From contig NZ_CP085530.1 in the NCBI RefSeq assembly GCF_020616155.1, positions 3,616,501 through 3,680,500 of the forward strand: a DNA stretch of 64,000 nucleotides, read 5' to 3'. The position numbers and the translations under genes are program-made. How positions within the stretch are numbered: position 1 is the first letter of the stretch; the number at the start of each line of letters is the position of its first letter. Source of the stretch: Vogesella sp. XCS3 (GTDB taxonomy: Bacteria; Pseudomonadota; Gammaproteobacteria; Burkholderiales; Chromobacteriaceae). This document shows positions 899 to 63,555 of this stretch, in pieces. The notes under the pieces are model-generated. The model was not told where the DNA came from. It searched no databases and saw only the letters and a list, made by a program, of their open reading frames with translations.

Positions 899-911
899 AA
901 GGTTGGCCGCA
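899..911 (+). repeat. Candidate DNA-uptake-like repeat GGTTGGCCGC (first of 37 copies)
   Basis: The 10-base core GGTTGGCCGC is exact on the + strand starting at 901, 5858, 10165, 11298, 12300, 16267, 20914, 24907, 25471, 32945, 38621, 42215, 45691, 47170, 48850, 49883, 51927, 55489, 57331, 58090 and 58661. It is exact on the - strand with leftmost base at 2606, 9943, 10380, 10806, 13844, 17508, 19733, 22130, 30949, 39042, 42339, 43638, 46404, 57339, 60297 and 63470. Counted by eye. The base before the core is A in 22 copies and G in most others; the base after it is A in 28. About twenty further sites match nine bases (GTTGGCCGC), for example 22708, 27871, 29653, 38400, 54400 and 62719. Copies occur inside genes and between them. 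The function is inferred; see findings. Confidence 0.85.
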
Positions 912-924
912 GCGACTGCCCAGC

Positions 925-953
925 AAAACCGCCGGTAACGTACCGGCGGTTTT
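925..953 (+). terminator. Rho-independent terminator of fbp
   Basis: A ten-base stem ACCGCCGGTA with a three-base loop pairs with TACCGGCGGT, flanked by AAA before and TTT after, 40 bases after the fbp stop. The A and T tracts make it plausible in both directions. Confidence 0.85.
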
Positions 954-1068
954 GCATTGTTCTGCTTTTATCTTCCTGCGTTGCAGCATTGCGCCTTCCT
1001 GCCCGTGGGCGAAACGCCTAAAATAGCGGCACAAACCCAACACAGCCCCTACGCTGGAGAACCCAATA

Positions 1069-2601
1069 ATGACCATCATCCGTCAGGACGACTTCATCCA
1101 GAGCATTGCCGATGCCTTCCAGTACATCAGCTGCTACCACCCGAAAGACTATATCGAGGCGTTGTACCAGGCCTATCTGCACGAAGAGAGCCCGGCGGCC
1201 AAAGACGCCATGGCGCAGATCCTGATCAACAGCCGCATGTGTGCCGAAGGTCGCCGCCCGATTTGCCAGGATACCGGTATTGCCGTGGTGTTCCTGAAAG
1301 TGGGTATGAAAGTGCAGTGGGACAGCACCCTGTCGGTGCAGGAAATGGTGAACGAGGGCGTGCGTCGTGCCTATAACAACCCGGACAACAAGCTGCGCGC
1401 CTCCGTGCTGCTGGACCCGGCAGGCAAGCGCCAGAACTCCAAAGACAACACCCCGGCCGTAGTGCACTTCGAAATCGTCGAAGGCGACGGCGTAGAAGTG
1501 ACCTGTGCGGCCAAGGGCGGCGGCTCCGAGAACAAATCCAAGTTCTACGCGCTGAACCCGTCCGACAGCATCGTTGACTGGGTGGTGAAAACCGTACCGA
1601 CCATGGGCGCCGGCTGGTGTCCGCCAGGCATCCTGGGTATCGGTATCGGCGGTACCCCGGAAAAAGCCATGCTGCTGGCCAAAGAATCGCTGATGGACCA
1701 CGTGGACATCCACGAGCTGAAAGCCAAGGCCGCCAGCGGCGCCGAGCTGAGCCGTGTAGAGCAGCTGCGCCTGGAGATCTTCGAAAAAGTGAACGCGCTG
1801 GGTATCGGCGCGCAGGGCCTGGGCGGCCTGACCACCGTGCTGGACGTGAAGATTCTGGATTACCCGACCCACGCCGCCAGCCTGCCGGTAGCCATGATCC
1901 CGAACTGCGCCGCCACGCGCCATATCCATTTCCACCTGGATGGCAACGGCCCGGCCGTGCTGGAAACGCCGAAGCTGGAAGACTGGCCGGAAATCACCTA
2001 CGACACCAGCAATGGCAAGCGTGTGAACCTGGACAACATCACGCCGGAAGAAGTGGCCAGCTGGCAGCCGGGCGACGTGCTGCTGCTGAACGGCAAGATC
2101 CTCACCGGCCGTGACGCCGCGCACAAGCGCATGGTGGACATGCTAAACAAGGGCGAGCAGCTGCCGGTAGACTTCACCAACCGCTTCATCTACTACGTCG
2201 GCCCGGTAGACCCGGTGCGTGACGAAGTGGTTGGCCCGGCCGGCCCGACTACCGCTACCCGCATGGACAAATTCACCCGCCAGATGCTGGAGCAAACCGG
2301 CCTGTTGGGCATGATCGGCAAGGCAGAGCGTGGCCCGGCAGCCATCGACGCCATCAAGGACAACAAAGCCGTGTATCTGATGGCGGTGGGCGGCTCGGCC
2401 TACCTGGTGTCCAAGGCTATCAAAGCGTCCAAAGTGGTGGGCTTTGCCGACCTGGGCATGGAAGCCATCTACGAGTTCGAAGTACAGGACATGCCGGTAA
2501 CCGTCGCCGTCGATTCGACTGGCACCTCGGTACACAACACCGGCCCGGCCGAGTGGAGCGTGAAAATCGCCGATATCGCGCGCGCCAAACAGCAAGCCTG
2601 A
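1069..2601 (+). CDS. fumA: Class I fumarate hydratase (iron-sulfur, FumA/FumB type)
   Basis: Interconverts fumarate and malate in the TCA cycle with an oxygen-sensitive [4Fe-4S] cluster. At 510 residues with fused N- and C-terminal fumarase domains it matches the single-chain class I form, not the 460-residue class II FumC. Likely cluster cysteines sit in RPICQDTG (C66) and IPNCAATRH (about C281). The C-terminal half carries the beta-domain blocks GPTTATRMD and GGSAYL. The start ATG follows CTGGAGAACCC, an acceptable ribosome site. It appears monocistronic, with its own terminator and a repeat copy (2606-2615) right behind the stop. The paralogue name within class I is a guess. Confidence 0.93.
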   Translation: MTIIRQDDFIQSIADAFQYISCYHPKDYIEALYQAYLHEESPAAKDAMAQILINSRMCAEGRRPICQDTGIAVVFLKVGMKVQWDSTLSVQEMVNEGVRRAYNNPDNKLRASVLLDPAGKRQNSKDNTPAVVHFEIVEGDGVEVTCAAKGGGSENKSKFYALNPSDSIVDWVVKTVPTMGAGWCPPGILGIGIGGTPEKAMLLAKESLMDHVDIHELKAKAASGAELSRVEQLRLEIFEKVNALGIGAQGLGGLTTVLDVKILDYPTHAASLPVAMIPNCAATRHIHFHLDGNGPAVLETPKLEDWPEITYDTSNGKRVNLDNITPEEVASWQPGDVLLLNGKILTGRDAAHKRMVDMLNKGEQLPVDFTNRFIYYVGPVDPVRDEVVGPAGPTTATRMDKFTRQMLEQTGLLGMIGKAERGPAAIDAIKDNKAVYLMAVGGSAYLVSKAIKASKVVGFADLGMEAIYEFEVQDMPVTVAVDSTGTSVHNTGPAEWSVKIADIARAKQQA

Positions 2602-2625
2602 TACTGCGGCCAACCCTGGCTAGCC

Positions 2626-2658
2626 AAAAAGCCTTCCCTTGCCGGGGAAGGCTTTTTT
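2626..2658 (+). terminator. Rho-independent terminator of fumA
   Basis: Stem AAGCCTTCCC pairs with GGGAAGGCTT across a short loop and is followed by six T, about 25 bases after the fumarase stop. It lies directly behind a repeat copy. Confidence 0.9.
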
Positions 2659-2699
2659 CTTGGCGCGCCGGTGGTGGCAAACGCACCGTTAACCGCACA

Positions 2700-2792: not shown

Positions 2793-2794
2793 GG

Positions 2795-5842: not shown

Positions 5843-5868
5843 TACTGGCATTACCAAGGTTGGCCGCA

Positions 5869-9390: not shown

Positions 9391-9966
9391 ATGTCCGCTT
9401 CTGCCCTGATCGTGATTGATGTCCAGCAATCCTTCCTGCACCGCCCGTACTGGGACGAGCGCGAACTGCCGGCCTTCCGCCAGGCAGTACTGGCGCTGAT
9501 CGCCGGTGCGCGCGCCCGCGGTGTGCCAGTGGTATACGTGCTGCACGAAGACGGCGACGGCCCGTTTGCCGCCGCCAGCGGCCACGTGCAGCCGATGGAC
9601 TGGCTGCCGCCGGCGCCGGATGCCACCTTTACCAAACACGTACACAACGCCCTTACCGATACCGGCCTGCAGGCGTGGCTGGCGGCGCGCGGCATAAACC
9701 GCCTGATCGTCAGCGGCATCCGCACCGAGCAGTGCTGCGAAACCACCACCCGCGTGGGCAGTGACCTGGGCTTTGCCGTGGACTACGTCACCGAAGCCAC
9801 GCTGACTTTTGCCATGACCCACCCGCACAGCGGCCGCGTATACAGCGCCGACGACATCCGCCAGCGAACCGAGCTGGTGCTGGCCGGCCGTTTTGCCGAC
9901 ATCCATACCGTGGCCAGCGTGCTGGCGCGGCTGGACGCCGATGCGGCCAACCAGGCCACCCTCTGA
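9391..9966 (+). CDS. Isochorismatase-family cysteine hydrolase
   Basis: A 191-residue cytosolic hydrolase with the Asp-Lys-Cys triad of the family: D10 in LIVIDVQQ, K82 in FTKHVHN, and C115 in GIRTEQC, plus the preceding cis-peptide region. Length and motif order are typical. Substrates in this family range from isochorismate to nicotinamide and other amides; no siderophore, NAD or pyrimidine genes lie nearby, so the substrate is not assignable. The following DUF1272 gene begins 13 bases after the stop and is probably co-transcribed. The ribosome site is weak. Confidence 0.88.
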   Translation: MSASALIVIDVQQSFLHRPYWDERELPAFRQAVLALIAGARARGVPVVYVLHEDGDGPFAAASGHVQPMDWLPPAPDATFTKHVHNALTDTGLQAWLAARGINRLIVSGIRTEQCCETTTRVGSDLGFAVDYVTEATLTFAMTHPHSGRVYSADDIRQRTELVLAGRFADIHTVASVLARLDADAANQATL

Positions 9967-9979: not shown

Positions 9980-10288
9980 ATGCTGCAACTACGCCCCAGC
10001 TGCGAACACTGCAACACGCCACTACCGCCCGACAGCCCAGACGCCCGCATCTGCAGCTACGAGTGCACGTTCTGCGCCCGCTGTGCCGAATCGGTGTTGC
10101 ACAACGTCTGCCCGAATTGCGGCGGCGGTTTCGCCCCACGCCCCATCCGCCCGGCGCGGCAGTGGGTTGGCCGCACCGGTTTGCCCGTGCATCCGGCCAC
10201 CCCCACCGTCACCTACCGGCCGGTGGATCTGGCCGCCCATGCCGCGCTGCTGGCGGCGCAGGGCGGGCTGCCGCCCACGCAGCGCTAG
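9980..10288 (+). CDS. DUF1272 zinc-binding protein
   Basis: A 102-residue protein whose first half is a cysteine-rich DUF1272 module: CEHCNTPLPPDS, ICSYECTFCARC and VCPNCGG supply at least eight cysteines, arranged to bind one or two zinc ions. The second half is basic and proline-rich with no recognised fold. AAAGGA stands nine bases ahead of the ATG. It follows the isochorismatase-like gene closely and contains a repeat copy at 10165. Function is unknown across the family. Confidence 0.85.
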   Translation: MLQLRPSCEHCNTPLPPDSPDARICSYECTFCARCAESVLHNVCPNCGGGFAPRPIRPARQWVGRTGLPVHPATPTVTYRPVDLAAHAALLAAQGGLPPTQR

Positions 10289-10403
10289 CGGCAGCTGTAT
10301 CCGGTAAATCGGAACGCACTGTTGCTGTCTGGCGCGTGCCGGCTGGCGTAAGCTCGATGTCATCATGCACCGGCCGCGTGCGGCCAACCTTGGGGAGCAA
10401 GCC

Positions 10404-11297
10404 ATGAACTGGCAAGACCGGCTGATCGCGCTGGCGATCGTTGCGGTATGGGGTTTCAACTTTGTGGTCATCAAATGGGGCGTGGCCGGCGTGCCACCGT
10501 TCCTGCTGGGGGCGCTGCGCTTTAGCGCCGCCGCCGGCCTGGGCCTGCTGTTTGTGCGCCGCCCCGCCATCCCGTGGCGCTGGCTTGCGCTGTACGGCCT
10601 CAGTGTGGGGCTGGGGCAGTTTGCCTGCCTGTTTACCGCCATCAAACTGGGCATGCCGGCCGGGCTGGCGTCCATCGTGCTGCAGTCGCAGGCGTTCTTT
10701 ACCCTGATCATCGGTATGTTATGGCTGGGCGAACGCTTTACGCCGTGGCAGCTGGCCGGCCTGCTGATCGGTAGCGCCGGGCTGTACCTGATCGGCGGCC
10801 TGGGTGCGGCCAACCTGCCGCTGGCCGGCTTTGTGCTGACGCTGTGCGGTGCCGCCAGCTGGGCGTTTTCCAACGTGGTGGTGCGCCGCATCGTGGCCGC
10901 CGGCTACCGGCCGGACATGCTGGGCCTGGTGGTGTGGAGCAGCCTGGTGCCCATCGTGCCGTTCTTTGCGCTGTCCGGCCTGTTTGAGGCGGACCGTATC
11001 GTGTGGGCACAGGTGGCCACGCCGCAAAGCCTGTTTGCCATTGCCTACCTGGCGCTGGTGGCCACGCTGTTCGGCTACGGCCAATGGAGCAAGCTGCTCA
11101 GCCGCCATGCGGCCAACGTGGTGGCGCCGTTTTCGCTGCTGGTGCCGTTTTTCGGCGTGCTGTCGGCGGCGCTGGTGCTGGGCGAGCGTCTCAGCTTCTG
11201 GCAGCTGGCCGGTGGCGCGCTGCTGCTGGGCGGGCTGGCGGTGAACGTGTTCGGCCCGCGCCTGCTGGCGCTGTGGCGCAAGCCGCAGCCGGCGTAA
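10404..11297 (+). CDS. eamA: EamA/DMT-family exporter
   Basis: A 297-residue inner-membrane protein with ten hydrophobic helices arranged as two EamA halves. The N-terminus (VWGFNFVVIKWG) and the blocks QFACLFTAIKLGMPAGLAS, SWAFSNVVVRRI and PFSLLVPFFGVLSAALVLGE align well with E. coli EamA, an exporter of O-acetylserine and cysteine. The ATG at 10404 has GGGGAG eight bases upstream; an earlier in-frame ATG has none. A repeat copy lies just before the ribosome site (10380-10389) and another in the gene. Substrate is inferred from similarity only. Confidence 0.85.
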   Translation: MNWQDRLIALAIVAVWGFNFVVIKWGVAGVPPFLLGALRFSAAAGLGLLFVRRPAIPWRWLALYGLSVGLGQFACLFTAIKLGMPAGLASIVLQSQAFFTLIIGMLWLGERFTPWQLAGLLIGSAGLYLIGGLGAANLPLAGFVLTLCGAASWAFSNVVVRRIVAAGYRPDMLGLVVWSSLVPIVPFFALSGLFEADRIVWAQVATPQSLFAIAYLALVATLFGYGQWSKLLSRHAANVVAPFSLLVPFFGVLSAALVLGERLSFWQLAGGALLLGGLAVNVFGPRLLALWRKPQPA

Positions 11298-12296
<999 letters not shown>

Positions 12297-12309
12297 CAAG
12301 GTTGGCCGC

Positions 12310-13251
12310 ATGAAAGACATCTACTTCCTGCTCACCCCGCGCTACCTGGCGCTGGACTTTGTCGGCCCGGCCGAGGCGTTTCGTATGGCGCAGGACGAGG
12401 GCGCGCCGTTTCGGCTGCACATTGCCGGCCCGGCCACGGAGTGCGTCTGCTCGCTGGGGCTGGTGTCGTGCATCGACCCGCTACCCGCAGCGGTGGCGGA
12501 CGGCAGCCTGGTGATCGTGGTGGGGACGGTAGATGAAGACGCCGATTACGCCACGCCCGAGGCGCAGCAGCTGGTGGCCTGGCTGCGCCAGCACATCCGC
12601 CCGCAGGTGGCGTTGGCCACCGTGTGTTCCGGCGCGCTGCTGGCCGGCATGGCCGGGCTGCTGGACGGCCGCGCCTGCACCACGCACCACAGCATTGTGG
12701 CCAAGCTGGCCGCCACCGCGCCGCGTGCGCGGGTGCTGGATAACCGCGTATTTGTGGAAGATGGCCACATCGCCACCTCGGCCGGCATTACCACCGGCAT
12801 GGACCTGGCGCTGGCACTGATCGAGCGCCATGCCGGGCCCGACGTGGCGGCGCGCGTGGCGCGGCGCATGGTGCTGTACAGCCGCCGCGCTGGCGACGAC
12901 GCCCAGCTATCGCCGTGGCTAGCCTTTCGCAACCACCTGCATCCGGCAGTACACCGCGCACAAGACGCCATCGCGCGCGACCCGGCGCAGCCGTGGCCCT
13001 TGGCCGCGCTGGCGGAGCGTGTGCACCTGAGCCCGCGCCACCTGACGCGGCTATTTCGCCAGCAAACCGGCGTCAGCATTGTGGAGTACCAGCAACGCTT
13101 GCGCGTGGCGGTGGTGCGCCAGCTATTGCAGCAGGGCATACCGGTAGAGCGCGCGGCCGAGGGCGCCGGTTTTGCCTCGGCACGCGATATGCGCCGGGTG
13201 TGGGCCAAGTTCGAGCCGCAGCTGCCGGGGCAGGTGGGCGGGCGTTTGTAA
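12310..13251 (+). CDS. GlxA-family transcriptional regulator (DJ-1/PfpI + AraC HTH)
   Basis: A 313-residue regulator combining an N-terminal DJ-1/PfpI-like domain (1-175, with the nucleophile-elbow block LATVCSGALLAGMAGLL) and a C-terminal AraC helix-turn-helix pair (about 215-305; LAERVHLSPRHLTRLFRQQTG and AAEGAGFASARDMRRVW). Proteins of this type sense small nitrogen or amine compounds or act without enzyme activity. The ATG directly follows a repeat copy whose AAGG can serve as ribosome site; a TTG further upstream is less likely. No obvious target operon adjoins it. Confidence 0.9.
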   Translation: MKDIYFLLTPRYLALDFVGPAEAFRMAQDEGAPFRLHIAGPATECVCSLGLVSCIDPLPAAVADGSLVIVVGTVDEDADYATPEAQQLVAWLRQHIRPQVALATVCSGALLAGMAGLLDGRACTTHHSIVAKLAATAPRARVLDNRVFVEDGHIATSAGITTGMDLALALIERHAGPDVAARVARRMVLYSRRAGDDAQLSPWLAFRNHLHPAVHRAQDAIARDPAQPWPLAALAERVHLSPRHLTRLFRQQTGVSIVEYQQRLRVAVVRQLLQQGIPVERAAEGAGFASARDMRRVWAKFEPQLPGQVGGRL

Positions 13252-13703: not shown

Positions 13704-14315
13704 TCAATCGCCAAACAGGCGCAGTTCGCGGGCGCGGTTGATCAGCTGCACTGCGTTGCTGGCGCCCAGCTTGCGTTGCAGGTTTTCACGGTGTTTGTCC
13801 ACGGTGCGTACCGACAGTGAAAAATGCGCGGCGATGTCGGCGTGCGGCCAACCCTGGCAGATCAGCTGCAGCACCTGGTACTCGCGGGCGGTGAGTGCCA
13901 CCTGGCTGTCCTGCATCAGCGCGCTGGCCGCCGGGCTGATCACGCGCTGGCCGGCCAGTACCCGTTGCAGAGCGGCCAGCATATCTGCCGCCGAGCCTTC
14001 TTTGAGTAGTAGGCCGTCGGCGCCGGCTTGTTGTACCTGGGCTAGCAGCTGCCCGCCGCGTTCTGCTGTCAGCATGACCAGGCGCAGGGCCGGGTAGCGC
14101 TGGCGCAGGTGTTGCAGCGTGGCCAGGGCATTGCCGCCGGGCATGTTGTAGTCCATCAGTACCAGCTGCGGTTCATGCTGTTGCACCAAGGGCAGCAGTG
14201 CGTCCAGCGTGCCGCACTCGGCCACTACCTGATATTCGGGCTGCATGCCCAGCAATAGCTTGAGGCCATCGCGAAAAATGGCGTGGTCGTCGGCTATGAT
14301 CACGGCTGAGCGCAT
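13704..14315 (-). CDS. NarL/LuxR-type response regulator
   Basis: A 203-residue regulator: receiver domain with D55 in LMDYNMPGG and K105-region LLKEGSAAD, and a LuxR helix-turn-helix at about 138-200 (LTAREYQVLQLICQGWPHADIA, then VRTVDKHRENLQRKLGASN). It is divergent from a histidine kinase gene only 15 bases away, which is the probable partner. No good ribosome site precedes the ATG. Confidence 0.92.
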   Translation of the reverse strand: MRSAVIIADDHAIFRDGLKLLLGMQPEYQVVAECGTLDALLPLVQQHEPQLVLMDYNMPGGNALATLQHLRQRYPALRLVMLTAERGGQLLAQVQQAGADGLLLKEGSAADMLAALQRVLAGQRVISPAASALMQDSQVALTAREYQVLQLICQGWPHADIAAHFSLSVRTVDKHRENLQRKLGASNAVQLINRARELRLFGD

Positions 14316-16202: not shown

Positions 16203-17281
16203 CCGAAACAGCGCGGCTCGGGCAGGCACAGGCCTATTTCGGCAAAAGCACTGTCTACGCACTGGCGGTTGGCCGCACTCACCTGAAACCAGTCGCGCCC
16301 GGCCAGCCAGCTAATGCCCAGGGTGTGGATGCTGTAATGCAGCGCCAGCGCCTCGCCAAAGCAGCCGAATACTACCCCGCGCGACAACATCAGCAAGCGC
16401 CAGGACAAGCTGCCCAGAATGTAATGCAGCTGCGCCGAGTAGGCGTTGCCGGCGTCCTGGCGGATAACGCGGGTACGGCAGCGCGCGTATTGCGCCATGT
16501 CCAGGTTGGCCGGCTCGGCCACGTCGATGACCGGCAGTTTTTTATCTGGCCGGCACAGCTGTGCTACGTCGTCGGCCTGCAGTCTGGCCGACTGGCTGTG
16601 GGTACACGCTACCACCGCGTCTACCTGGCCGATGTCGGCGATGCGGGTGTGCACGGCAATGCCGTGTTCGGCCTGCACCTGGGCCAGCGCGCTGGCGTTG
16701 CCGCCGTATCCCACTACCTCGTAGCCGGCGTCGCGTAGCGGCTGCAGGATGGCCGAGCCCAGAATGCCGTAAGGGCCGATCACCAGCACGCGGCCGTGAC
16801 CGGGGGCGATGGCGTGCGTTTGCAGCGCACGGAACACGTCGGCCAGCAGCATGTTGGCCGTACCGTTATCGCCAATGGTGAACAGCAGGTGCGGAAAGCG
16901 CGCCTTCAGTTCGGCACCGTCGCGGCCGAACAGCCGCTTGGTGGACGCCGCCAGCAGGATGACGCGGGCGCCGTTTTGTTCGGCCCACTCGGTGGCAGCG
17001 ATAAACTGCGCCTTGGCCAGGCGGCGGCCGTCGCGGCTCAGCATCTCTTCGGCGGTAACAAAAATGCCGCGCACACGGCCAGCGACCCCGCGCAGGTAGA
17101 TGCGCGGGCCGTTGGCGTGGCCCAGGCGCGGCGCACGGCCGCCAAAGAAGCGCTGCCGTTCGGCCTCGTCGCGCAGGTTGGTAATGAACACCACGTCTAC
17201 CGGCGGGCGGCCGGTCAGCATACGTGCCAGGGCACGCAGATCGCACAGCGCTACCATCAGGCGCCACAGATTGGCCAGCAT
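16112..17281 (-). CDS. Rossmann-fold oxidoreductase resembling long-chain acyl-ACP/aldehyde reductases
   Basis: A 389-residue protein. The central VLVIGPYGILGSAI is a nucleotide-binding glycine motif. Ahead of it, IAATEWAEQNGARVILLAASTKRLFG and FTIGDNGTANMLLADVF follow the layout seen in cyanobacterial acyl-ACP reductases (helical lead-in, a TK block, then GD.TA before the Rossmann fold). I therefore place it near that family with modest confidence; a catalytic cysteine was not verified (one candidate lies in VVACTHSQSAR). The ATG at 17281 has AGGAGA eight bases upstream. The 3' end runs 91 bases antisense into the kinase gene. Substrate unknown. Confidence 0.6.
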   Translation of the reverse strand: MLANLWRLMVALCDLRALARMLTGRPPVDVVFITNLRDEAERQRFFGGRAPRLGHANGPRIYLRGVAGRVRGIFVTAEEMLSRDGRRLAKAQFIAATEWAEQNGARVILLAASTKRLFGRDGAELKARFPHLLFTIGDNGTANMLLADVFRALQTHAIAPGHGRVLVIGPYGILGSAILQPLRDAGYEVVGYGGNASALAQVQAEHGIAVHTRIADIGQVDAVVACTHSQSARLQADDVAQLCRPDKKLPVIDVAEPANLDMAQYARCRTRVIRQDAGNAYSAQLHYILGSLSWRLLMLSRGVVFGCFGEALALHYSIHTLGISWLAGRDWFQVSAANRQCVDSAFAEIGLCLPEPRCFGQPVAAWPAASGICTANTAPLPGVERTASV

Positions 17282-38973: not shown

Positions 38974-39069
38974 ACAGCCTGTTCTTGCTACCTGTCTTTA
39001 ACTTTGCCTGCCTGTCCCCATCTGCCTGCTCTTGCCGCCATGCGGCCAACCTTATTGCCGGAGAACACC

Positions 39070-46325: not shown

Positions 46326-47071
46326 GATGGCTCCTTGATGGTGGACAGTACGCCGTGCTGCAGTACCAGCAGCAGCGCGGCTTGCAGGTCGAAGTCTGGC
46401 GCGGCGGCCAACCCTGCCGCACTGGCATCGTCCAGCGTGGCACCGCGCAGCAGCGCCTGGCAGAAGGCCGCCTGGCCGGGTGCCAGCGTGTGCAGCTGCA
46501 TCAGGCCATCGCCATTGCGCCACAGCAGCAGCGGCTGCGCGGTGGCCATGTCCACCGCACAGCCGGCGGTGGCCGGCTGGTGGTGGGCGTGGATGTCGGC
46601 CAGCGGCCACGGGCTGTCCAGTACGGCGCAGGCCGGGTGGCAGGCAAAGCTCAGACTGCCCCATTGCGGCTGCGGGATGGCGGCCAGCGTGGCGATGGCC
46701 AGCGGCGTGGCGTCCGGTGCGTAGTAGCCGCGGTGCAGTGCCCACTCCAGCCGTGCCACGTCCGGCAAGTAGCCGATGGACGCCGTATGTTCGAAGGTGG
46801 CGACAAAGCCGGCAAAGCTGCCGCCGTAGCGGTGCAGGTTGCCGCTATCCGACGGTGTGGCTTTCACGTATGCGCGGCTTAGTGCCTCGAAAAACTCCTC
46901 ACCCAATAGCTGGCGGCAGATCGGGTACACCAGCGCCAGCATCTCCATCAGGCCGACGCGGTAGTTATTGCGGTACACCGCCAGCGCGGCGGCGGGAAAG
47001 CGCGGGTCGGGCTGCCACTGCGGCGTGGTGATGGCGTCCAGCAGCGCGTGTTGCCAGGCGGTTTCGTTCAT
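46322..47071 (-). CDS. bufC: DUF2063 partner protein of MNIO modification enzyme
   Basis: A 249-residue DUF2063 protein, the BufC/HvfC partner that helps deliver or recognise the precursor for the MNIO enzyme. The N-terminal region (ALAVYRNNYRVGLMEMLALVYPICRQLLGEEFF) is the family hallmark, and a C-terminal strand-rich half follows. Its ATG overlaps the bufB stop, and its stop overlaps the DoxX start; all are therefore co-translated. Confidence 0.9.
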   Translation of the reverse strand: MNETAWQHALLDAITTPQWQPDPRFPAAALAVYRNNYRVGLMEMLALVYPICRQLLGEEFFEALSRAYVKATPSDSGNLHRYGGSFAGFVATFEHTASIGYLPDVARLEWALHRGYYAPDATPLAIATLAAIPQPQWGSLSFACHPACAVLDSPWPLADIHAHHQPATAGCAVDMATAQPLLLWRNGDGLMQLHTLAPGQAAFCQALLRGATLDDASAAGLAAAPDFDLQAALLLVLQHGVLSTIKEPS

Positions 47072-47916
47072 GCGGCGGCCTCCGTGTGCTGGTCGAGTAT
47101 GGCCTGTGCGGTAGCGGCTTCGGCCAGCAGCGTGTCCAGCGGCGGGATGTCGATGTCCCATTCGATCAGGGTTGGCCGCGCGCCGAAGCGGGCGATTACC
47201 TGCCGGTACAGCTGCCACACCGCCGGGTATACCGGGCGGCTGTGGGTATCCACCAGTAGCGTGCTGCCGTCGTCAAATGTGCGCTCGGTGTAGCCGGCCA
47301 GGTGGATTTCGCCAATCGCGTGCGGCGGCAGTGCAGCCAGGAAGGCGTCTACATCGGTGCCCAGGTTTTGCTGGTTCACGTACAGATTGTTCACGTCCAG
47401 CAGCAGGCCGCAGCCGGTGCGCGCCACCAGCTCGGCCAGAAACTCGCCCTCGTGCATGTCGTTGCCGGGGTAGGCCAGGTAGCTGGACAGGTTTTCTATC
47501 AGCAGCGGCCGGCGCAGCGCGTCCTGCGCCTCGGCCACGTTGGCCGCCACCAGGTCCAGCATGGCGCGGGTGTAGGGAATGGGCAGCAGGTCGTTGGCAA
47601 AGCGTTGGCTGGCGTCGTGGTTGAACGACAGGTGCTCGGATACTGCGGCGGCGGGTACCGCGTCCAGCAAGCGCCGTAGCGCAGCCAGGTGGGTGGCGTC
47701 GGGGCGGGCTGCTGCGCCCAGGCCCAGGCCGACGCCGTGCAGCGATAACGGGTAGCGTGCGGCCAACTGTTGCAGCATGGCCAGCGGCTGGCCGCCGTCA
47801 AAGAAGTTTTCGCTGTGCAGCTCTATCCAGCCCAGTGCCGGCTGCTGGGCCAGTACCTGGCTGTAGTGGGGGTGACGCAGGCCGATGCCGGCGCAAACGG
47901 GAAGGGGGGCAGTCAT
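47068..47916 (-). CDS. bufB: MNIO-type (DUF692) peptide-modifying oxidase
   Basis: A 282-residue DUF692 TIM-barrel enzyme of the multinuclear non-heme iron oxidase family (with MbnB, BufB and HvfB). Conserved metal-binding blocks are visible: WIELHSENFF, SEHLSFN, LLIENLSSYL, GLLLDVNNLYVN and GEIHLAGYT. The family converts cysteines of a precursor to modified, copper-binding groups. The precursor gene bufA lies 108 bases upstream and bufC overlaps it downstream, the usual bufferin order. Confidence 0.95.
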   Translation of the reverse strand: MTAPLPVCAGIGLRHPHYSQVLAQQPALGWIELHSENFFDGGQPLAMLQQLAARYPLSLHGVGLGLGAAARPDATHLAALRRLLDAVPAAAVSEHLSFNHDASQRFANDLLPIPYTRAMLDLVAANVAEAQDALRRPLLIENLSSYLAYPGNDMHEGEFLAELVARTGCGLLLDVNNLYVNQQNLGTDVDAFLAALPPHAIGEIHLAGYTERTFDDGSTLLVDTHSRPVYPAVWQLYRQVIARFGARPTLIEWDIDIPPLDTLLAEAATAQAILDQHTEAAA

Positions 47917-48467: not shown

Positions 48468-49109
48468 TTAGCGGATGTTGACGACCTTGTGCGTCTGCAC
48501 CGATAGCCGCCAGGCCGGGTGAGCCATGCACCAGGCGATGGCTTCACGGGTGTTCTGGCGTTGCAGCGGGCTGTCCATTGGCTGCAGGTACAGGTGGTCG
48601 AACTGCAGGTCGGCCGGTAGCTCGCCGGGCAGCAGCGTGGGCTGCGGGTAAACCAGCTTCAGCTCGTGGCCGCTGCGCTGTACCCAGTCGGCGCCAGCCT
48701 TGGGGCTGACGCAGATCCAGTCGATGCCGCGTGGCGCGGGCAGGCTGCCGTTGGTTTCTACCGCTACCTCGAAACCCAGCGCGTGCAAGGCGTCGATCAG
48801 CGGCTCGTCCAGCTGCAGCAGCGGTTCGCCCCCGGTAAACACCACATAAGGTTGGCCGCCGGTGGCGCCCGTGGGCCAGGTGGCGGCAATGCGTGCTGCC
48901 AGCTCGGCAGCGGTGGCAAACTTGCCGCCGTCGGGGCCGGTGCCGACAAAGTCGGTATCGCAAAACTGGCAGATGGCTTTGCTGCGGTCTTCTTCGCGCC
49001 CGCTCCACAGGTTACAGCCGCTAAAGCGGCAGAATACCGCCGCACGGCCGGCCTGGCGGCCTTCGCCCTGCAGCGTGTAGAAGATCTCTTTTACGGTGTA
49101 GTTCGCCAT
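48468..49109 (-). CDS. queE: 7-carboxy-7-deazaguanine synthase
   Basis: A 213-residue radical-SAM enzyme of queuosine/7-deazapurine synthesis that forms 7-carboxy-7-deazaguanine from carboxytetrahydropterin. The cluster cysteines are spaced C-x14-C-x2-C (GCNLWSG ... CQFCDT), the variant form known for Burkholderia QueE, rather than the classical CxxxCxxC. VVFTGGEPLLQ is the SAM block. The ATG at 49109 follows a purine-rich site; the gene begins 10 bases behind queD. Confidence 0.95.
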   Translation of the reverse strand: MANYTVKEIFYTLQGEGRQAGRAAVFCRFSGCNLWSGREEDRSKAICQFCDTDFVGTGPDGGKFATAAELAARIAATWPTGATGGQPYVVFTGGEPLLQLDEPLIDALHALGFEVAVETNGSLPAPRGIDWICVSPKAGADWVQRSGHELKLVYPQPTLLPGELPADLQFDHLYLQPMDSPLQRQNTREAIAWCMAHPAWRLSVQTHKVVNIR

Positions 49110-49119: not shown

Positions 49120-50130
49120 TTACAGCAACGGCCACTGCATGTCGCCACGGAAGGTCAGCGACACGCCTTGTTCCGGGGTTTCCATCAGGTCGATGCGCGA
49201 CAGCTCCGGTACCAGCGGTTTGAGTTCGCCGTGTACCCACTCGGCCACGCTGCCGGCGTCGGCTGCGCGGATGCCGCTGAGCTTGTCCAGCGGGTTGTGG
49301 TCCAGCTGGCGGTAGATGGGCTTGAAGCGGTCTTTTACGTCGCCAAAGTCCAGCACCCAGCCCATCACCCGGTCCACGCTGCCTTGCAACATCAGGCGGA
49401 TCAGGTAACTGTGGCCGGTGTAGTTGCCGGCGGCGTCGAACGGCACCGCGCTTTCAAAGTGCTGCTCTTTCCAGATACGGTAGGTGTGGCCGTCGAACTG
49501 GCTGCCGGCGGTGTGCGTCTCGCGCACTTCCACCCAGGCCAGGCCGGCCAGGCGCGGCTGCAGCTGCTGGTACAGCCAGGCTGCCATTACCTCGCTGGTG
49601 GGGTTTTCCAGGCCGGGGATGTCGTTCAGGTAGCGGTGGTTCAGCTGCGCAAACAGCGGCGGCCAGGCTTGTAGCAAGATGTCGTTCAGCGAGGCATGGC
49701 GCGCGTCGGCCACAATGCGCACGCCAAAGCCGTGGCCGTGCAGGCGGCCGCACTTGTGGCCGGGCGGTACGTGTGGCAGCTGGTGCGCGGCTTCGAAACG
49801 GGTATCGAAGTACACGTACTCGCGGCCGTCTTCGCCCAGCAGCACGCCACGGTCCGGCGCGCTGGCCAGGTGCAGGCTGCCAGGTTGGCCGCAGGCGGCC
49901 AGCAGGTGGCGGGCCAGCGACAGGTCGCTGGCGTCGGCCAGGTGCTGGCTGATATTGCCGTAGTGGAACGGCGCTACCGCTTGTTGCAGCGTGCTTTGCA
50001 AGGCGGGCAGGGTGTCCGGCAGCGCGGCGGTGCGCAGCTGCACGCGGAAGCTGTGGCCGTGCTCGCCCACGCCCGGCAGGGTGCGCGCGGCTTCAAAACC
50101 GGCGCCTAGCAGATGATGGCGGGCGTTCAT
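49120..50130 (-). CDS. queD: 6-carboxytetrahydropterin synthase, three-module form
   Basis: QueD makes 6-carboxytetrahydropterin from dihydroneopterin triphosphate. It is usually 120-150 residues; this one is 336 and holds three PTPS-like modules. Module 1 (about 1-100) has GFEAAR and EHGHSF. Module 2 (about 105-220) is the complete one, with zinc His 116, 131 and 133 and the catalytic Cys 127 in KCGRLHGH, then LNHRYLND and GLENPTSE. Module 3 (about 224-336) keeps DFGDVK and LDHNPLD and an E in METPE but shows FDAAG in place of FxAAH. The ATG overlaps the queC stop. Confidence 0.92.
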
Positions 50131-51851: not shown

Positions 51852-52007
51852 GGCAATGTTCAGGGCAAAAGGGGATCACCCATTATGCGCAAAAGCAGGC
51901 CAGGTGCCCACGGTGCGATCGGGCAGGGTTGGCCGCGTGGGGGCGGGTGCCACGGTAGTGCCCGTGCTCGGTTACAATGAAGCCCTCCCGTCACCCTGAA
52001 CGCCGGT
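51852..52007. promoter_or_regulatory. Divergent region, lipid kinase / glpR
   Basis: TACAAT at 51973-51978 is a fair -10 for glpR. A repeat copy lies at 51927-51936. No GlpR-type operator was seen. Confidence 0.45.
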
Positions 52008-54379: not shown

Positions 54380-54472
54380 CGTTCTATCCTTTGCGTCACG
54401 TTGGCCGCATGCGGCCGCCTGATTGATTCCAGTGTAGAAGATAGTGAAATCACGATCACAAAGCAACACAAA

Positions 54473-55396: not shown

Positions 55397-55516
55397 GATG
55401 TGTTCCTTGCAAAAAGGGGGACCACCCGTGCCACCTCGTGGGCTGGCACCGGGCAGGTCGGTATTAAGGGGGCGTGCGGCCAAGCTCAGGTTGGCCGCAA
55501 ACAGGCTGGCGGGCGC

Positions 55517-57019: not shown

Positions 57020-57375
57020 AAAGCTCTCCTTGGGCGCGGGCGCCTTTGTTGTCTTGTGTTTTTTGTTTGATTTATGTTTGTAAAATGTTGTTTTTGTTTT
57101 CGGGTGATTCTAGGCCGCTGGCATCGGCTGTCAATATCCCCCGCGCAAAATTTGTCTGCGCCCGGTTTATCGGGGTGTGTGCTGTGGTGTAGTCGGTTGG
57201 CTACAAGTTGTTGCATGGCAAGGTAAAAAGCGGCTGCCCAAGCGTAGTTCGCTTGCCATTGCCGCCCGTGGCCGGGCTTGTAACAGATTGTGCATTGCAA
57301 ACGCTTGGTGGCTAGTACCAATGCAAACAGGGTTGGCCGCGGCCAACCCTGTTGTTGTGTATTACCTGGCTTGCT
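57020..57375 (-). promoter_or_regulatory. Upstream region of glpK with candidate GlpR site
   Basis: The 356 bases ahead of glpK hold an AT-rich promoter-like patch (57045-57105) with ATGTTTG plus TAAAATGTT (57074-57089), nearly identical to the glpD-upstream segment. The rest holds no gene and ends at the repeat palindrome. Confidence 0.55.
57326..57353. repeat. 28-base perfect palindrome made of two repeat copies
   Basis: Two head-to-head repeat cores (57331-57340 and 57339-57348) overlap at GC and extend into AACAG / CTGTT arms. It lies just behind the stop of the DJ-1 gene (-) and may act as a terminator, although its loop would be very small and the T tract is weak. Confidence 0.8.
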
Positions 57376-58080: not shown

Positions 58081-58100
58081 TGCGGCCAAGGTTGGCCGCA
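58081..58100. repeat. Near-palindromic repeat pair
   Basis: TGCGGCCAA and TTGGCCGCA arms with GG between them; only the second is a full core copy (58090-58099). It lies between the old-yellow-enzyme gene and the DJ-1 gene of the nem operon. Confidence 0.7.
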
Positions 58101-58154: not shown

Positions 58155-59255
58155 TTACTGGCCCAGGGCCGGGTAGTCGGTGTAGCCCTCGGCGCCACCG
58201 CCGTAGAAGGTTTCCGGGCGCGGCGGGTTCAGCGGCGCGCCGGCGGCCAGGCGTGCCGGCAGGTCGGGGTTGGCGATGAAGCTGCGGCCAAAGGCCACGG
58301 CGTCGATCAGGCCGGCGCCGATCAGCTTCTCGGCTTTTTCCAGCGTGTAGCCACCGGCTGCCACGATGGTGCCGGGGTAGACGGCACGCACGCGCTGGCG
58401 GAAGTCGTCGCTCCAGGCCGGGCCACCGGCCCAGTCCGGCTCCGACAGGTGCAGGAAGGCGATGTTGCGCTTGGCGATTTCGCCGATCAGGTACAGCGCC
58501 ATCTCTTGCTGGTCGGTTTCCGACAGGCCGTTGAATACGCCCAGCGGCGACAGGCGGATGCCCACATGGTCGGCATCCCATTCGGCGATCACCGCGTCCA
58601 GCACTTCCAGCACAATGCGGGCGCGGTTTTCCACGCTGCCACCGTACTGGTCGGTACGCTGGTTGGCCGCCGGCGACAGGAACTGGTCCAGCAGGTAGCC
58701 GTGGGCGCCGTGGATTTCCACCAGGTCGAAGCCGGCGCGGCGCGCGTTGTCAGTGGCGCGGCGGTAGTCTTCGATCAGGTCGGCGATTTCGGCGGTTTCC
58801 AGCGCACGCGGGGTGGATACCGGGGCGCGCACCAGCTGGCCGTTTTCGTCACGGATATTGGTGTTGCTGTTGGCCGCAATGGCGGACGGCGCCACCGGGG
58901 CTTCGCCGCCCGGCTGCAGGCTGTTATGCGAGATGCGGCCGGTGTGCCACAGCTGGATGGCGATCTTGCCGCCTTCAGCGTGCACGGCGTCGTTCACGCG
59001 CTGCCACATCTGGATCTGGTCTTCGCTGTAGATGCCCGGCGCGCCGGCGTAGCCCTTGGCGGTGGGGGAGATGTGGGTGCCTTCGTTAATGATCAGGCCG
59101 GCACCGGTGCGCTGGCGGTAGTACGCGATGGCCAGCTCGGTGGGCACGTCGCCCGGCTCGGTGTTGCGCAGGCGGGTCAGCGGTGCCATCAGCACACGGT
59201 TGTTCAGGGTAACGGCGCCCAGGCGCACGGGGGTCAGCAGTTTATCGGCTTGCAT
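58155..59255 (-). CDS. nemA: Old-yellow-enzyme flavoprotein, N-ethylmaleimide reductase type
   Basis: A 366-residue FMN reductase of electrophilic alkenes and nitro compounds. Catalytic blocks include [40 protein letters not shown] and [13 protein letters not shown]. Length and order match NemA and xenobiotic reductases. It follows the nitroreductase gene by 21 bases and precedes the DJ-1 gene. Confidence 0.94.
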
Positions 59256-60106: not shown

Positions 60107-60724
60107 TCAGGCTGCCGGGCGGCAGGGCGCCAGCTGGCCTTCGGTATGGATCATCGCGGCCTGCAGCGGCAGCAGGCTATGCTGCGTTTTCTGCATCAGC
60201 GCGGCGCCCAGCCACAGGCTGTACAGCGCGTAGGCGGTTTCATCCGGCGGCAGCTGCGGCTTGATGCTGCCGTCGGCCTGGCCAGCGCGAATGCACGCGG
60301 CCAACCTGTGCACGATGGCGTCCATGCCTTCGTGCAGTGCCAGCCGCATCGGCTCGGACAGGTCGGACACCTCGGCCGCCAGCTTCACCGCCAGGCAGCT
60401 GTGCGCCTCGCAGCGGGCGTGGTGGTCCAGCCATTGCCGGAAGTAGGCCAGCAGCCGGGCCCGGCCATCGCCGATGCTGTCATCGGCCAGCAGCAGGCCG
60501 ACACGCTCGCGGTACACCGCAAAATAGCGGGTCAGCATGGCCACGCCGAAGTCTTCTTTCGACTTGAAGTAATGATAAAACGACCCCTTGGGTACCCCGG
60601 CTTCGTTCAAGAGCTCGGTCAGGCCCATCGCGGTAAAGCTGCGGCCATGGATCAGCGCCTCGCCAGTAGCCAGGATGTGTTCGCGGGTGTCGGTGTGCAG
60701 TCGTTCTCGTGCCATGGGGTGCAT
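60107..60724 (-). CDS. nemR: TetR-family repressor, NemR type
   Basis: A 205-residue TetR-family repressor with an N-terminal helix-turn-helix (GLTELLNEAGVPKGSFYHYFKSK) and a ligand domain holding HSCLAVKLAAEVSDLSEPMR, the region of the redox-active Cys in E. coli NemR. A Met at position 4 is an alternative start. TAGAC inverted repeats stand ahead of this gene and of the next. It likely senses electrophiles and hypohalous stress. Confidence 0.92.
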   Translation of the reverse strand: MHPMARERLHTDTREHILATGEALIHGRSFTAMGLTELLNEAGVPKGSFYHYFKSKEDFGVAMLTRYFAVYRERVGLLLADDSIGDGRARLLAYFRQWLDHHARCEAHSCLAVKLAAEVSDLSEPMRLALHEGMDAIVHRLAACIRAGQADGSIKPQLPPDETAYALYSLWLGAALMQKTQHSLLPLQAAMIHTEGQLAPCRPAA

Positions 60725-60735
60725 GATAGTGCAAA

Positions 60736-60751: not shown

Positions 60752-60902
60752 GTGGTGTTCGGGTGGGGGCGCGGGCTGATCTTGTCACTGGCGTGGCAAC
60801 TGAATCGCGCCTACCTATCCCGGATAGTTGGTGAACCTAAGGCTAGGCGGTACAAGGAGGCGCCGCTAGCAAGCCGAAAAGTGCAGGGTTGACGCCGTAA
60901 AG

Positions 60903-61924: not shown

Positions 61925-62713
61925 ATGACTCTTATCCCTATCCATGCTGACAGCGAGCCTGCTGTGCCACCCTGCGGTGATTGCCGCAACGGGGAGGCGC
62001 TGGATTTCGCTTTCAGCTATGCATTCCAGCCCATTATCGACCTGCGTGCGGGCAGCATTTTTGCGCATGAGGCGCTGGTGCGTGGCCCGGCGGGCGAGGG
62101 GGCGCTGAGTGTGCTGGCCCAGGTAAACGATGAAAACCGCTACCGTTTCGACCAGGCTTGCCGTGTGAAAGCCATCGAGGTGGCGGCGCGGCTGGGCATG
62201 CGCAGCAAGCTTTCCATCAACTTTTTGCCCAATGCCATTTACCGCCCCGAGGTGTGCATCCGCACCACGCTGCAGGCGGCGCGCCAGTTTGGCTTTCCTG
62301 TAGAGCAGATCATTTTCGAGACGGTAGAGAGCGAGCGTATCGACGACGGCAGCTGGCTGGCCACGGTGTTTAGCGCCTATCAGCGTATCGGTTTCATGAC
62401 GGCGATTGACGATTTTGGCGCCGGTTACGCCGGGCTTAACCTGCTGGCGGCGTTTCAGCCCGACATCGTCAAGCTGGATATGGCGCTGGTGCGGGGTATC
62501 GAGCAGAAAAAGGCGGCCCGCGTCATAGTGGCCAGCGTGGCGCGCATGTGCGACCAGCTGGGTATCCGCGTGATTGCCGAAGGGGTGGAAACACGCGAAG
62601 AGCTAACCTGCCTGCAAGACATCGGTGTGCATCTGGTGCAGGGCTATTTGTTTGGCAAGCCGCAGTTCGAGCAGTGCGTGGCGGATATTAGCCAGATCTG
62701 GCCGCCGGCCTAG
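61925..62713 (+). CDS. EAL-domain cyclic-di-GMP phosphodiesterase
   Basis: A 262-residue single-domain EAL protein. All key residues appear present: EAL at 49-51, SINFLPNAI, FETVES, AIDDFGAGYAG, KLDM and AEGVET. It should hydrolyse cyclic-di-GMP. It lacks a sensor or membrane segment; an N-terminal cysteine pair (CGDC) may bind a metal or redox ligand. It stands alone 89 bases before modA. Confidence 0.92.
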   Translation: MTLIPIHADSEPAVPPCGDCRNGEALDFAFSYAFQPIIDLRAGSIFAHEALVRGPAGEGALSVLAQVNDENRYRFDQACRVKAIEVAARLGMRSKLSINFLPNAIYRPEVCIRTTLQAARQFGFPVEQIIFETVESERIDDGSWLATVFSAYQRIGFMTAIDDFGAGYAGLNLLAAFQPDIVKLDMALVRGIEQKKAARVIVASVARMCDQLGIRVIAEGVETREELTCLQDIGVHLVQGYLFGKPQFEQCVADISQIWPPA

Positions 62714-62748
62714 TACTAGTTGGCCGCATTTTGGCGTATTGCGCCCAT

Positions 62749-62772
62749 CGCTATATACGTGCTTATATAGCG
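62749..62772. promoter_or_regulatory. ModE-type operator upstream of modA
   Basis: CGCTATATA and TATATAGCG flank a six-base centre, a perfect inverted repeat with the CG-TATAT form of ModE boxes, 31 bases before modA. Confidence 0.75.
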
Positions 62773-62802
62773 CCTCGATTTCCCGACGCGGAGCAAGGCA
62801 AG

Positions 62803-63555
62803 ATGACGCGCATTCATACCCTGGTAGCCAGCATGGGCCTGAGCCTGGCCTGCAGCATGGCGCTGGCCGGCGAGATAACCGTATCGGCAGCCTCCAGCCT
62901 GACTAATGCTTTCAAAGACGTGGCGCAGAGTTTCGAGGCGCAGTACCCCGGTAGCAAGGTACAGCTGAATTTTGCCGCCTCTGGCGCGCTGCTGCAGCAG
63001 CTGGCCAAAGGCGCGCCGGTGGATGTGCTGGCCTCGGCCGACCAGGAAACCCTGGACCAGGCCGCCAAACAGGGGCTGATCCAGCCAGCCAGCCGCCGCG
63101 ACTTTGTGCGCAATACCCTGGTGCTGGTGGTACCGGCGGGCAGCAAGCTGGCTCCCAAAAGCCTGGCCGAGCTGGCCCAGCCGGCTTACGGCAAGGTGGC
63201 GATAGGCAACCCGGCCAGCGTGCCGGTAGGGCGCTATACGCAGGACGCGCTGGAGGCGGCCAGGCTGTGGCCGGCGGTGAGTGCCAAGGCGGTGAACACC
63301 CTGAATGTGCGCCAGTCGCTGGACTACGTGGCGCGTGGCGAGGTGGACGCCGGTTTTGTGTACGCCACCGATGCCCGGCAGATGGCCGACAAGGTAAAAG
63401 TAGCGTTTACCGTGCCGCTGGATAGCGCTATCCGCTACCCCATTGCGGCTACCACCGCTGCGGCCAACCCGCGCGAGGCCAAAAGCTTTATCGATTACGT
63501 GTTATCCCCCGCGGGGCAGGCCATTCTGGCGCGCTACGGCTTTCAGAAGCCCTGA
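62803..63555 (+). CDS. modA: Molybdate-binding periplasmic protein
   Basis: A 250-residue exported molybdate receptor. A signal peptide ending near ALAGE is followed by ITVSAASSLTNAFKDVAQSFE, LNFAASGALLQQL and GNPASVPVGRYTQDAL, the ModA ligand-loop blocks. AAGG precedes the ATG. It leads modAB, with a ModE-type box ahead. Confidence 0.95.
   Translation: MTRIHTLVASMGLSLACSMALAGEITVSAASSLTNAFKDVAQSFEAQYPGSKVQLNFAASGALLQQLAKGAPVDVLASADQETLDQAAKQGLIQPASRRDFVRNTLVLVVPAGSKLAPKSLAELAQPAYGKVAIGNPASVPVGRYTQDALEAARLWPAVSAKAVNTLNVRQSLDYVARGEVDAGFVYATDARQMADKVKVAFTVPLDSAIRYPIAATTAAANPREAKSFIDYVLSPAGQAILARYGFQKP

What the first reader, a model, noticed from the sequence alone, without database searches (positions are those of the whole stretch)
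899..63480. Candidate DNA uptake sequence GGTTGGCCGC, about 37 copies in 64 kb
Seen directly: the exact 10-mer occurs about 37 times, 21 on one strand and 16 on the other, with A usual before and after. It sits in genes of unrelated families, in different frames and in gaps, so it is not a shared protein motif. A random 10-mer would appear roughly 0.1-0.3 times in this length, even allowing for GC bias. The density of about one per 1.7 kb resembles that of Neisseria DUS and Haemophilus USS, but the word differs from both. Alternatives are a segregation or replication motif, or a methyltransferase-linked site; the even orientation argues against a strand-polar motif such as Chi or KOPS.
Basis: partly seen in the sequence, partly recalled or inferred. 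Interest (0 to 1): 0.9.

Follow-up and report, generated by a model that had tools for sequence, protein, structure and literature searches.

The report
A new bacterial DNA uptake password
A ten-letter DNA word is written about 1,700 times into this bacterium's genome, yet almost never into its plasmid-like second piece, and it looks like the tag by which these environmental bacteria would recognise DNA of their own kind before taking it up, in a spelling that breaks the rule known from Neisseria.

Summary
Confirmed. GGTTGGCCGC occurs 37 times in the window (0.63 expected) and 1,733 times in the genome (reversed word: 12), without strand bias. The better core is GTTGGCCGCA, consensus AGGTTGGCCGCA. 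Synonymous codon shuffling does not produce it (27 coding copies against 2.3). The plasmid-like second contig has 3 copies in 160 kb, and the word is better conserved than control words in two of three relatives. All 13 genomes of the genus (most likely Vogesella) carry it. Ten more of the 61 family genomes carry sister words, GTTGGCCGAA or GTTGGCCGAG; 38 carry neither. A pilin whose best solved relatives are the Neisseria ComP receptors is present. Best explanation: a DNA uptake sequence read by ComP, a second branch of the Neisseria system in which the supposedly invariant CTG core is CCG. Frye et al. 2013 reported no obvious DUS in P. ferrooxidans 2002 (then Lutiella nitroferrum), which carries one. 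Uptake and binding are untested. Cautions: ComP homologues in genera without the word, one missing disulfide, and a tree in which Neisseria ComP groups first with other Neisseria-family pilins.

The parts
901..911 (+). uptake word GGTTGGCCGCA (both 10-mers)
2605..2615 (-). uptake word, both 10-mers
5858..5868 (+). uptake word, both 10-mers
9942..9952 (-). uptake word, both 10-mers
10165..10175 (+). uptake word, both 10-mers
10379..10389 (-). uptake word, both 10-mers
10805..10815 (-). uptake word, both 10-mers
11108..11117 (-). GTTGGCCGCA only
11298..11308 (+). uptake word, both 10-mers
12300..12310 (+). uptake word, both 10-mers
13843..13853 (-). uptake word, both 10-mers
16267..16277 (+). 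uptake word, both 10-mers
17507..17517 (-). uptake word, both 10-mers
17930..17939 (-). GTTGGCCGCA only
19732..19742 (-). uptake word, both 10-mers
20914..20924 (+). uptake word, both 10-mers
22129..22139 (-). uptake word, both 10-mers
22690..22699 (-). GTTGGCCGCA only; closely spaced inverted pair with 22708
22708..22717 (+). GTTGGCCGCA only; closely spaced inverted pair with 22690
24282..24291 (-). GTTGGCCGCA only
24907..24917 (+). uptake word, both 10-mers
25471..25481 (+). uptake word, both 10-mers
27871..27880 (+). GTTGGCCGCA only
29653..29662 (+). GTTGGCCGCA only
30948..30958 (-). uptake word, both 10-mers
32945..32954 (+). GGTTGGCCGC only
34929..34938 (-). GTTGGCCGCA only
36528..36537 (-). 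GTTGGCCGCA only
38400..38409 (+). GTTGGCCGCA only
38621..38631 (+). uptake word, both 10-mers
39041..39051 (-). uptake word, both 10-mers
42215..42225 (+). uptake word, both 10-mers
42338..42348 (-). uptake word, both 10-mers
42509..42518 (+). GTTGGCCGCA only
43637..43647 (-). uptake word, both 10-mers
45691..45701 (+). uptake word, both 10-mers
46404..46413 (-). GGTTGGCCGC only
47170..47179 (+). GGTTGGCCGC only
47758..47767 (-). GTTGGCCGCA only
48850..48859 (+). GGTTGGCCGC only
49883..49893 (+). uptake word, both 10-mers
51927..51936 (+). GGTTGGCCGC only
54400..54409 (+). GTTGGCCGCA only
55489..55499 (+). uptake word, both 10-mers
57331..57340 (+). GGTTGGCCGC, half of an overlapping palindromic dyad GGTTGGCCGCGGCCAACC
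57339..57348 (-). GGTTGGCCGC, other half of the dyad
58090..58100 (+). uptake word, both 10-mers
58661..58670 (+). GGTTGGCCGC only
58869..58878 (+). GTTGGCCGCA only
60297..60306 (-). GGTTGGCCGC only
62719..62728 (+). GTTGGCCGCA only
63459..63469 (-). uptake word, both 10-mers

Best explanation
AGGTTGGCCGCA is the DNA uptake sequence (DUS) of this genus. Free DNA that carries it is bound by a ComP-like minor pilin in the type IV pilus, drawn in by the pilus, passed to ComEA and ComEC, and recombined into the chromosome with the help of DprA. Preferred uptake and recombination of tagged DNA then multiplies and preserves the tag in shared chromosomal DNA, on both strands, and leaves newly arrived DNA untagged. 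It is one dialect of a second DUS group, core GTTGGCCG, spread over part of the Chromobacteriaceae. Shown here: the repeat, its distribution, conservation and dialects, and genes for a ComP-like pilin, ComEA, ComEC and DprA. Inferred: that this pilin reads the word and that the word raises uptake; the pilus motor and secretin were not searched for.
For: 1,733 copies in 3.89 Mb, reversed word 12. 13 of 13 genomes of the genus have 1,406-1,867 copies; the 48 other family genomes have 15-74. Orientation 879/854; in 14 chromosomal samples 26:35 where GC skew is positive and 38:41 where it is negative (summed). Codon-preserving null rejected. 3 copies in 160 kb of contig C2 (0.8 expected there) against 177 in 344 kb of chromosome (3.9 expected), Fisher P 2e-25. 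Identical in 36 of 38 aligned sites in G056 against 96 of 141 composition-matched control sites (P 0.0003), and in 26 of 31 against 45 of 92 in G050 (P 0.0005). In G000 one-letter variants at +2 to +8 do not clearly exceed expectation. Sister words GTTGGCCGAA and GTTGGCCGAG in other genera; CA is the commonest ending in all 8 genomes of the genus sampled and AG in both g5 genomes. The same k-mer method finds the known DUS in 3 of 4 genomes sampled of family f44. The candidate receptor's three best solved relatives are the ComP structures 2nba, 2m3k, 5hz7, while a PilE-like pilin of the genome hits PilE 4noa first and no ComP at E 0.1. ComEC, DprA, ComEA present. The closely spaced inverted pair occurs in all 23 genomes with a dialect and in one of the 38 without (G017, once); reversed control 0.
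Against: No uptake or binding data. Conservation is not significant in the more distant G060 (20 of 37 against 43 of 105, P 0.12). Full-length ComP-like pilins also occur in genera without the word (g2, g3, g8), so the pilin alone does not predict it. In the tree Neisseria ComP groups first with five other f44 pilins (94/84), not directly with the homologues of the dialect genera; the fork that sets the ComP side apart from PilE-like pilins is weak (78/87), and the best candidate of one dialect genome (g9) lies on the PilE side. The only cysteines shared by all 30 aligned homologues are one pair, whereas Neisseria ComP has two disulfides, reported as crucial for DUS binding. Some other dialect genomes do show excess variants inside the core (G010 +4, G037 +3). 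ComEC, DprA and ComEA also occur in many of the 14 control genomes. C2 is lower in GC than the chromosome, and that it is a plasmid was not tested.
Confidence: 0.8

Rival explanations
1. The word is an uptake sequence, but its receptor is another pilin or DNA-binding protein and the ComP-like pilin is incidental.
For: ComP-like pilins also occur in genera without the word; one disulfide is missing; Neisseria ComP groups first with other f44 pilins; two further pilins of the genome pass the ComP_DUS cut-off.
Against: Of the two pilins compared with solved structures, only this one has the ComP structures as best hits; it has a full-length homologue in all 13 genomes of the genus.
Confidence: 0.15
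2. A highly iterated motif without role in uptake, as HIP1 in cyanobacteria (recalled): spread by mutation, methylation or mismatch-repair bias.
For: Great abundance and spread inside genes.
Against: Not a palindrome; near absence from C2 of the same cell; coherent change of the last two letters by genus; closely spaced inverted pairs; ComP-like pilin.
Confidence: 0.03
3. A chromosome segregation, replication or recombination signal (KOPS, Chi, parS, matS type).
For: Chromosomal and abundant.
Against: Orientation 879/854; no visible relation with GC skew and 3 to 15 copies in each of 14 samples.
Confidence: 0.01
4. A restriction or methyltransferase site, or a codon or protein motif.
For: GGCC is a common restriction core (recalled).
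Against: Ten defined bases, over-represented rather than avoided; codon-preserving null rejected and all six frames used; eight of ten proteins tested in different families.
Confidence: 0.01

Closest known systems
DNA uptake sequence (DUS) dialects of Neisseriaceae, e.g. AG-simDUS AGGCTGCCTGAA, AG-DUS AGGCCGTCTGAA, AG-eikDUS AGGCTACCTGAA (Frye et al. 2013, PMC3630211: passages and section 6; words)
   Same: 12-bp non-palindromic word that begins AG-G and ends mostly in A, 1,000-2,000 copies in most carriers, both strands, inverted pairs, depleted in the plasmid-like contig, dialects by genus, ComP-like pilin. AGGTTGGCCGAA agrees with simDUS and mucDUS in 9 of 12 positions in register (shuffled words reach the best of 7 dialects with P 0.0036, or 0.01 at offsets up to 3 and both strands).
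   Different: Positions +6 to +8 are CCG, not the CTG that is conserved in all eight dialects and needed for transformation; +5 is G. For the Vogesella and AG words the likeness is weaker (8 of 12; P 0.015-0.017 in register, 0.06-0.08 with offsets), so common descent of the words is plausible but not proved.
Uptake signal sequence (USS) of Pasteurellaceae
   Same: Same kind of phenomenon (short repeated self-tag).
   Different: Different word (recalled); a different receptor pilin is predicted there (PMC12616744, start of abstract in a search listing only).
HIP1 of cyanobacteria (recalled)
   Same: Very abundant short word.
   Different: Palindromic; no link with uptake known to me.

Membership tests
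Neisseriaceae DUS (as defined in PMC3630211) | one 10-12-mer present in hundreds to thousands of copies | tested here: met
   1,733 copies, reversed word 12; sister words 238-2,223 copies in 10 genomes
Neisseriaceae DUS (as defined in PMC3630211) | CTG at +6 to +8, conserved in all dialects and needed for transformation | tested here: not met
   CCG in the top words of all carriers found without a preset motif; substitutions at +6 to +8 are rare
Neisseriaceae DUS (as defined in PMC3630211) | A at +10 | tested here: inconclusive
   Commonest letter in the window genus (223 CA of 360 GTTGGCCGNN in G000) and in the AA dialect; not met in g5, where G dominates in both genomes
Neisseriaceae DUS (as defined in PMC3630211) | rare in recently acquired DNA, conserved in the core genome (PMC2397512, passages) | tested here: met
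   3 in 160 kb of the plasmid-like C2 against 177 in 344 kb; conserved above controls in two of three relatives; prophages and islands not tested
Neisseriaceae DUS (as defined in PMC3630211) | closely spaced inverted pairs that act as terminators (PMC2397512, passages) | tested here: inconclusive
   Pairs exist; 6 of 14 in the samples have a run of four or more T on a side; termination untested
Neisseriaceae DUS (as defined in PMC3630211) | the word raises uptake or transformation | not testable with these tools
   needs an experiment
ComP (DUS receptor pilin) | sequence closest to ComP among solved pilins | tested here: met
   2nba, 2m3k, 5hz7 are the three best hits; PilE-like control gives 4noa first
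ComP (DUS receptor pilin) | two disulfide bridges | tested here: not met
   Only C122 and C131 are shared by all 30 homologues; the window organism's protein has these two cysteines only
ComP (DUS receptor pilin) | groups with Neisseria ComP in a tree of pilins | tested here: inconclusive
   Both lie on the side away from PilE-like pilins, but that fork has 78/87, and Neisseria ComP groups first with five other f44 pilins (94/84)
ComP (DUS receptor pilin) | binds DNA, better with the cognate DUS | not testable with these tools
   needs binding assays

The most novel reading that the evidence does not exclude
A whole second branch of the DUS-ComP system exists outside the Neisseriaceae, with core GTTGGCCG and at least three dialects (CA, AA, AG endings) in the Chromobacteriaceae. 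The CTG core is then not a law of ComP recognition but a feature of one branch; self-recognition in transformation arose before the two families split, and was lost in several lineages that still keep ComP-like pilins.
Probability: 0.57. Interest if true: 0.82.

Novelty: new variant of a known kind. Interest (0 to 1): 0.76.

Why it matters
How ComP reads its DNA word is unsolved, and models lean on the CTG core as fixed (PMC12061091, passages). If a natural ComP group is paired with CCG words, it gives the missing contrast: related receptors with different cores, plus near relatives that lack the tag. It would move the origin of the system back before the split from the Chromobacterium line, after which Frye et al. 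placed it, and it predicts natural competence in environmental bacteria that could serve as models. It also gives a simple way to spot foreign DNA in these genomes.

Tried and rejected
Codon or protein motif: rejected by synonymous shuffling and by use of all frames. Strand-polar or segregation motif: rejected by orientation. The first ComP candidate, the best PF16732 hit (L009, 81.7 bits), was rejected: it follows pilin-like reading frames (named by eye) and its best solved relative is PilE. PF16732 alone does not mark ComP: 60 of 61 family genomes pass its cut-off, and the 11 loci of its best hits that I put in the tree group with that PilE-like pilin. Other families sampled for a repeat of this kind gave none: f41 (80 kb), f21 and f38 (40 kb each), and one of four f44 genomes (60 kb); these are small samples. 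IMG/VR gave two contigs with the inverted pair, neither enriched in a dialect word, and the one Verrucomicrobia MAG of the genome scan is not enriched either: taken as chance. A plasmid-collection search with 20 of the 164.5 kb of C2 gave no match, but that collection may leave out records of this genome. Literature: in the listings of searches I saw no paper that reports this word as an uptake sequence, or a DUS in Vogesella; some listings were cut (20 of 103 papers, 20 of 44, 15 of 78), and only openly licensed PMC papers are held. Table S1D of PMC3630211, which lists over-represented 10-mers of the five genomes called DUS-less, could not be read and may contain the Pseudogulbenkiania word. 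wadDUS was left out of the likeness test, so 7 of 8 known dialects were compared.
Full report
OBSERVATION. The 10-mer GGTTGGCCGC occurs 37 times in the window, 21 and 16 by strand; shuffles give 0.63. The window is part of a 3.89 Mb genome in two contigs; the genome holds 1,733 copies (879 and 854), the reversed word 12. Beyond the 12 positions AGGTTGGCCGCA the flanks carry little information. Of its one-letter variants in this genome, those at +10 (102 against 10) and +1 (22 against 7) exceed expectation and those at +9 slightly (8 against 3); at +2 to +8 they do not clearly do so. That is the profile of a word kept by recognition. In other carriers some core variants are in excess: +4 T in G010 (20 copies), +3 C in G037 (15).

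NOT CODING OR COMPOSITION. Shuffling synonymous codons among 55 heuristic genes gives 2.29 coding copies against 27 observed, and 1.44 against 35 for GTTGGCCGCA (300 shuffles). Ten of 37 copies lie outside genes or cross a gene edge, and all six frames occur. Eight of ten proteins tested have Pfam matches, each in a different family; two have none.

DISTRIBUTION IN THE CELL. Each of 14 chromosomal samples of 20 kb holds 3 to 15 copies, on both strands; forward to reverse is 26:35 where GC skew is positive and 38:41 where it is negative (summed, not tested formally). In 160 of 164.5 kb of the second contig there are 3 copies, against 177 in 344 kb of chromosome including the window (Fisher P 2e-25). 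GC differs (0.52 in C2), but against its own expectation the chromosome is 45-fold over and C2 about fourfold. 7,500 positions of the chromosomal sample are unreadable. The median spacing of GTTGGCCGCA is 1.2 kb.

CONSERVATION. In the regions aligned to three relatives the core word is identical in 36 of 38 sites (G056), 26 of 31 (G050) and 20 of 37 (G060); composition-matched control words give 96 of 141, 45 of 92 and 43 of 105; P 0.0003, 0.0005 and 0.12. The controls are not matched for codon position.

THE GENUS AND ITS KIN. All 13 genomes of the genus carry 1,406-1,867 copies of GGTTGGCCGC; the other 48 genomes of the family 15-74. Sampling 20-100 kb from other genera and counting 10-mers against a Markov model showed sister words: GTTGGCCGAA in g6, g7, g9, g10 and one g2 genome, GTTGGCCGAG in g5. 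Whole-genome counts of GTTGGCCGAR: 238-2,223 in 10 genomes, 24-154 in the other 51. So 23 of 61 genomes carry a dialect and 38 do not. G040 and G043 (154 and 130 copies) may be remnants. The 3' end sets the dialect: CA is commonest in 8 of 8 genomes sampled of the window genus, AG in 2 of 2 of g5, AA elsewhere, though in G036 only 9 of 23. The inverted pair CGGCCAACCTN{2,8}AGGTTGGCCG occurs in all 23 and, once, in G017.

NAMES. One scan of the collection of 84,980 species for CGGCCAACCTTNNAAGGTTGGCCG gave 18 stretches: four Vogesella species (five stretches), Pseudogulbenkiania ferrooxidans 2002 and P. subflava (five), Gulbenkiania mobilis (two), Crenobacter oryzisoli and C. luteus, Paludibacterium denitrificans, 'Neisseriaceae bacterium JH1-16', an Aquitalea-labelled MAG and a Verrucomicrobia MAG; records near the window's genome may be left out. 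The Vogesella stretches have the CA ending, C. luteus AG, the other Chromobacteriaceae AA; the Verrucomicrobia MAG is not enriched. Contig lengths and BLAST tie G037 to JH1-16, G045 to P. denitrificans, G036 to C. oryzisoli and G046 to Pseudogulbenkiania. That the window's genus is Vogesella rests on the shared CA dialect and on 77-88% DNA identity of V. alkaliphila and V. indigofera stretches to two genomes of the genus; a P. subflava stretch reaches 86% to a third, so identity alone does not decide. The window genome itself is not named. Taking g3 for Chromobacterium and g2 for Aquitalea rests on size, number of species and one MAG label, in part recalled.

RECEPTOR. A 138-residue pilin at C1:3106142-3106555 lies between a FimT-like pilin frame and, beyond one small frame, an aroB-like gene (both named by eye). 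Its three best solved relatives are ComP structures (E 9e-8 to 8e-6 alone; 2e-20 to 4e-19 as a family profile, other pilins 9e-12 or weaker). A PilE-like pilin of the genome, though the best match of Pfam's ComP_DUS model, hits PilE first and no ComP at E 0.1. Homologues of 47-95% identity exist in the 12 other genomes of the genus and full-length ones in other genera, also in some without the word. In a tree of 58 pilins the homologues of the window genus form one group (100/98); a larger group with nearly all dialect genera has 88/89 and includes a g8 and a g2 homologue from genomes without the word. Neisseria ComP groups first with five other f44 pilins (94/84) and then with two ComP-like f44 pilins (98/92); the g9 candidate falls on the PilE side; the deep fork has 78/87. 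So closeness to ComP rests on the profile comparison more than on the tree. One of the two disulfides of Neisseria ComP is missing. ComEC, DprA and ComEA are present, but also in many control genomes.

INTERPRETATION. The features match those described for DUS in Neisseria: abundance, both strands, inverted pairs, rarity outside the core genome, stringent conservation (PMC2397512, passages), and dialects by lineage (PMC3630211, passages and section 6). In register the AA word reads AG-GTTGGCCGAA against AG-GCTGCCTGAA (simDUS): 9 of 12; the CA and AG words reach 8 of 12. Shuffled words reach this with P 0.0036 to 0.017 in register and 0.01 to 0.08 with offsets, so homology of the words is suggested, not proved. 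The CTG core is CCG in the top words of all carriers found. I therefore call it a system that works like DUS and is probably its sister branch, but do not file it among the eight CTG dialects.

PRIOR WORK. Frye et al. report no obvious DUS in Lutiella nitroferrum 2002, Pseudogulbenkiania sp. NH8B, two Chromobacterium and Laribacter, and no ComP by BLAST in C. violaceum. The name L. nitroferrum now leads to P. ferrooxidans, whose strain 2002 holds ten GTTGGCCGAA in the 16 kb seen here. Their Table S1D lists over-represented 10-mers and was not readable. No other report came up in the listings seen.

Noticed in passing
G000:C2:55343-55934 (L175): A tandem array of 16 copies of a 37-bp unit with an inner near-palindrome (GTGTGCTATTAGCACAC), perhaps plasmid iterons or a partition site.
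   Followed up: partly
G010 (L181-L185): GTTTGCCGAA occurs 20 times in 100 kb beside GTTGGCCGAA (32): possibly two dialects in one genome, as reported for Simonsiella.
   Followed up: partly
G037 (L084-L088): GTCGGCCGAA occurs 15 times in 100 kb (about 3 expected for all +3 variants): a possible secondary dialect.
   Followed up: no
G040, G043 (g8): 154 and 130 copies of GTTGGCCGAR against 37-78 in the other four genomes of the genus: possible remnant of a lost dialect.
   Followed up: partly
window 57331-57348: Two copies overlap as a perfect palindrome GGTTGGCCGCGGCCAACC; a few more such dyads occur in the chromosomal samples, like the overlapping dyads described for Simonsiella.
   Followed up: partly
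Pfam PF16732 (ComP_DUS): The model passes its cut-off in 60 of 61 genomes of the family, and 11 of 11 best-hit loci put in a tree group with a PilE-like pilin, so annotation as ComP by this model alone is unsafe.
   Followed up: yes
G224 (L206), family f44: A small genome of the Neisseria-like family has a ComP-like pilin that looks by eye like those of the dialect genera, though the tree puts it on the f44 side; its uptake word was not sampled.
   Followed up: no
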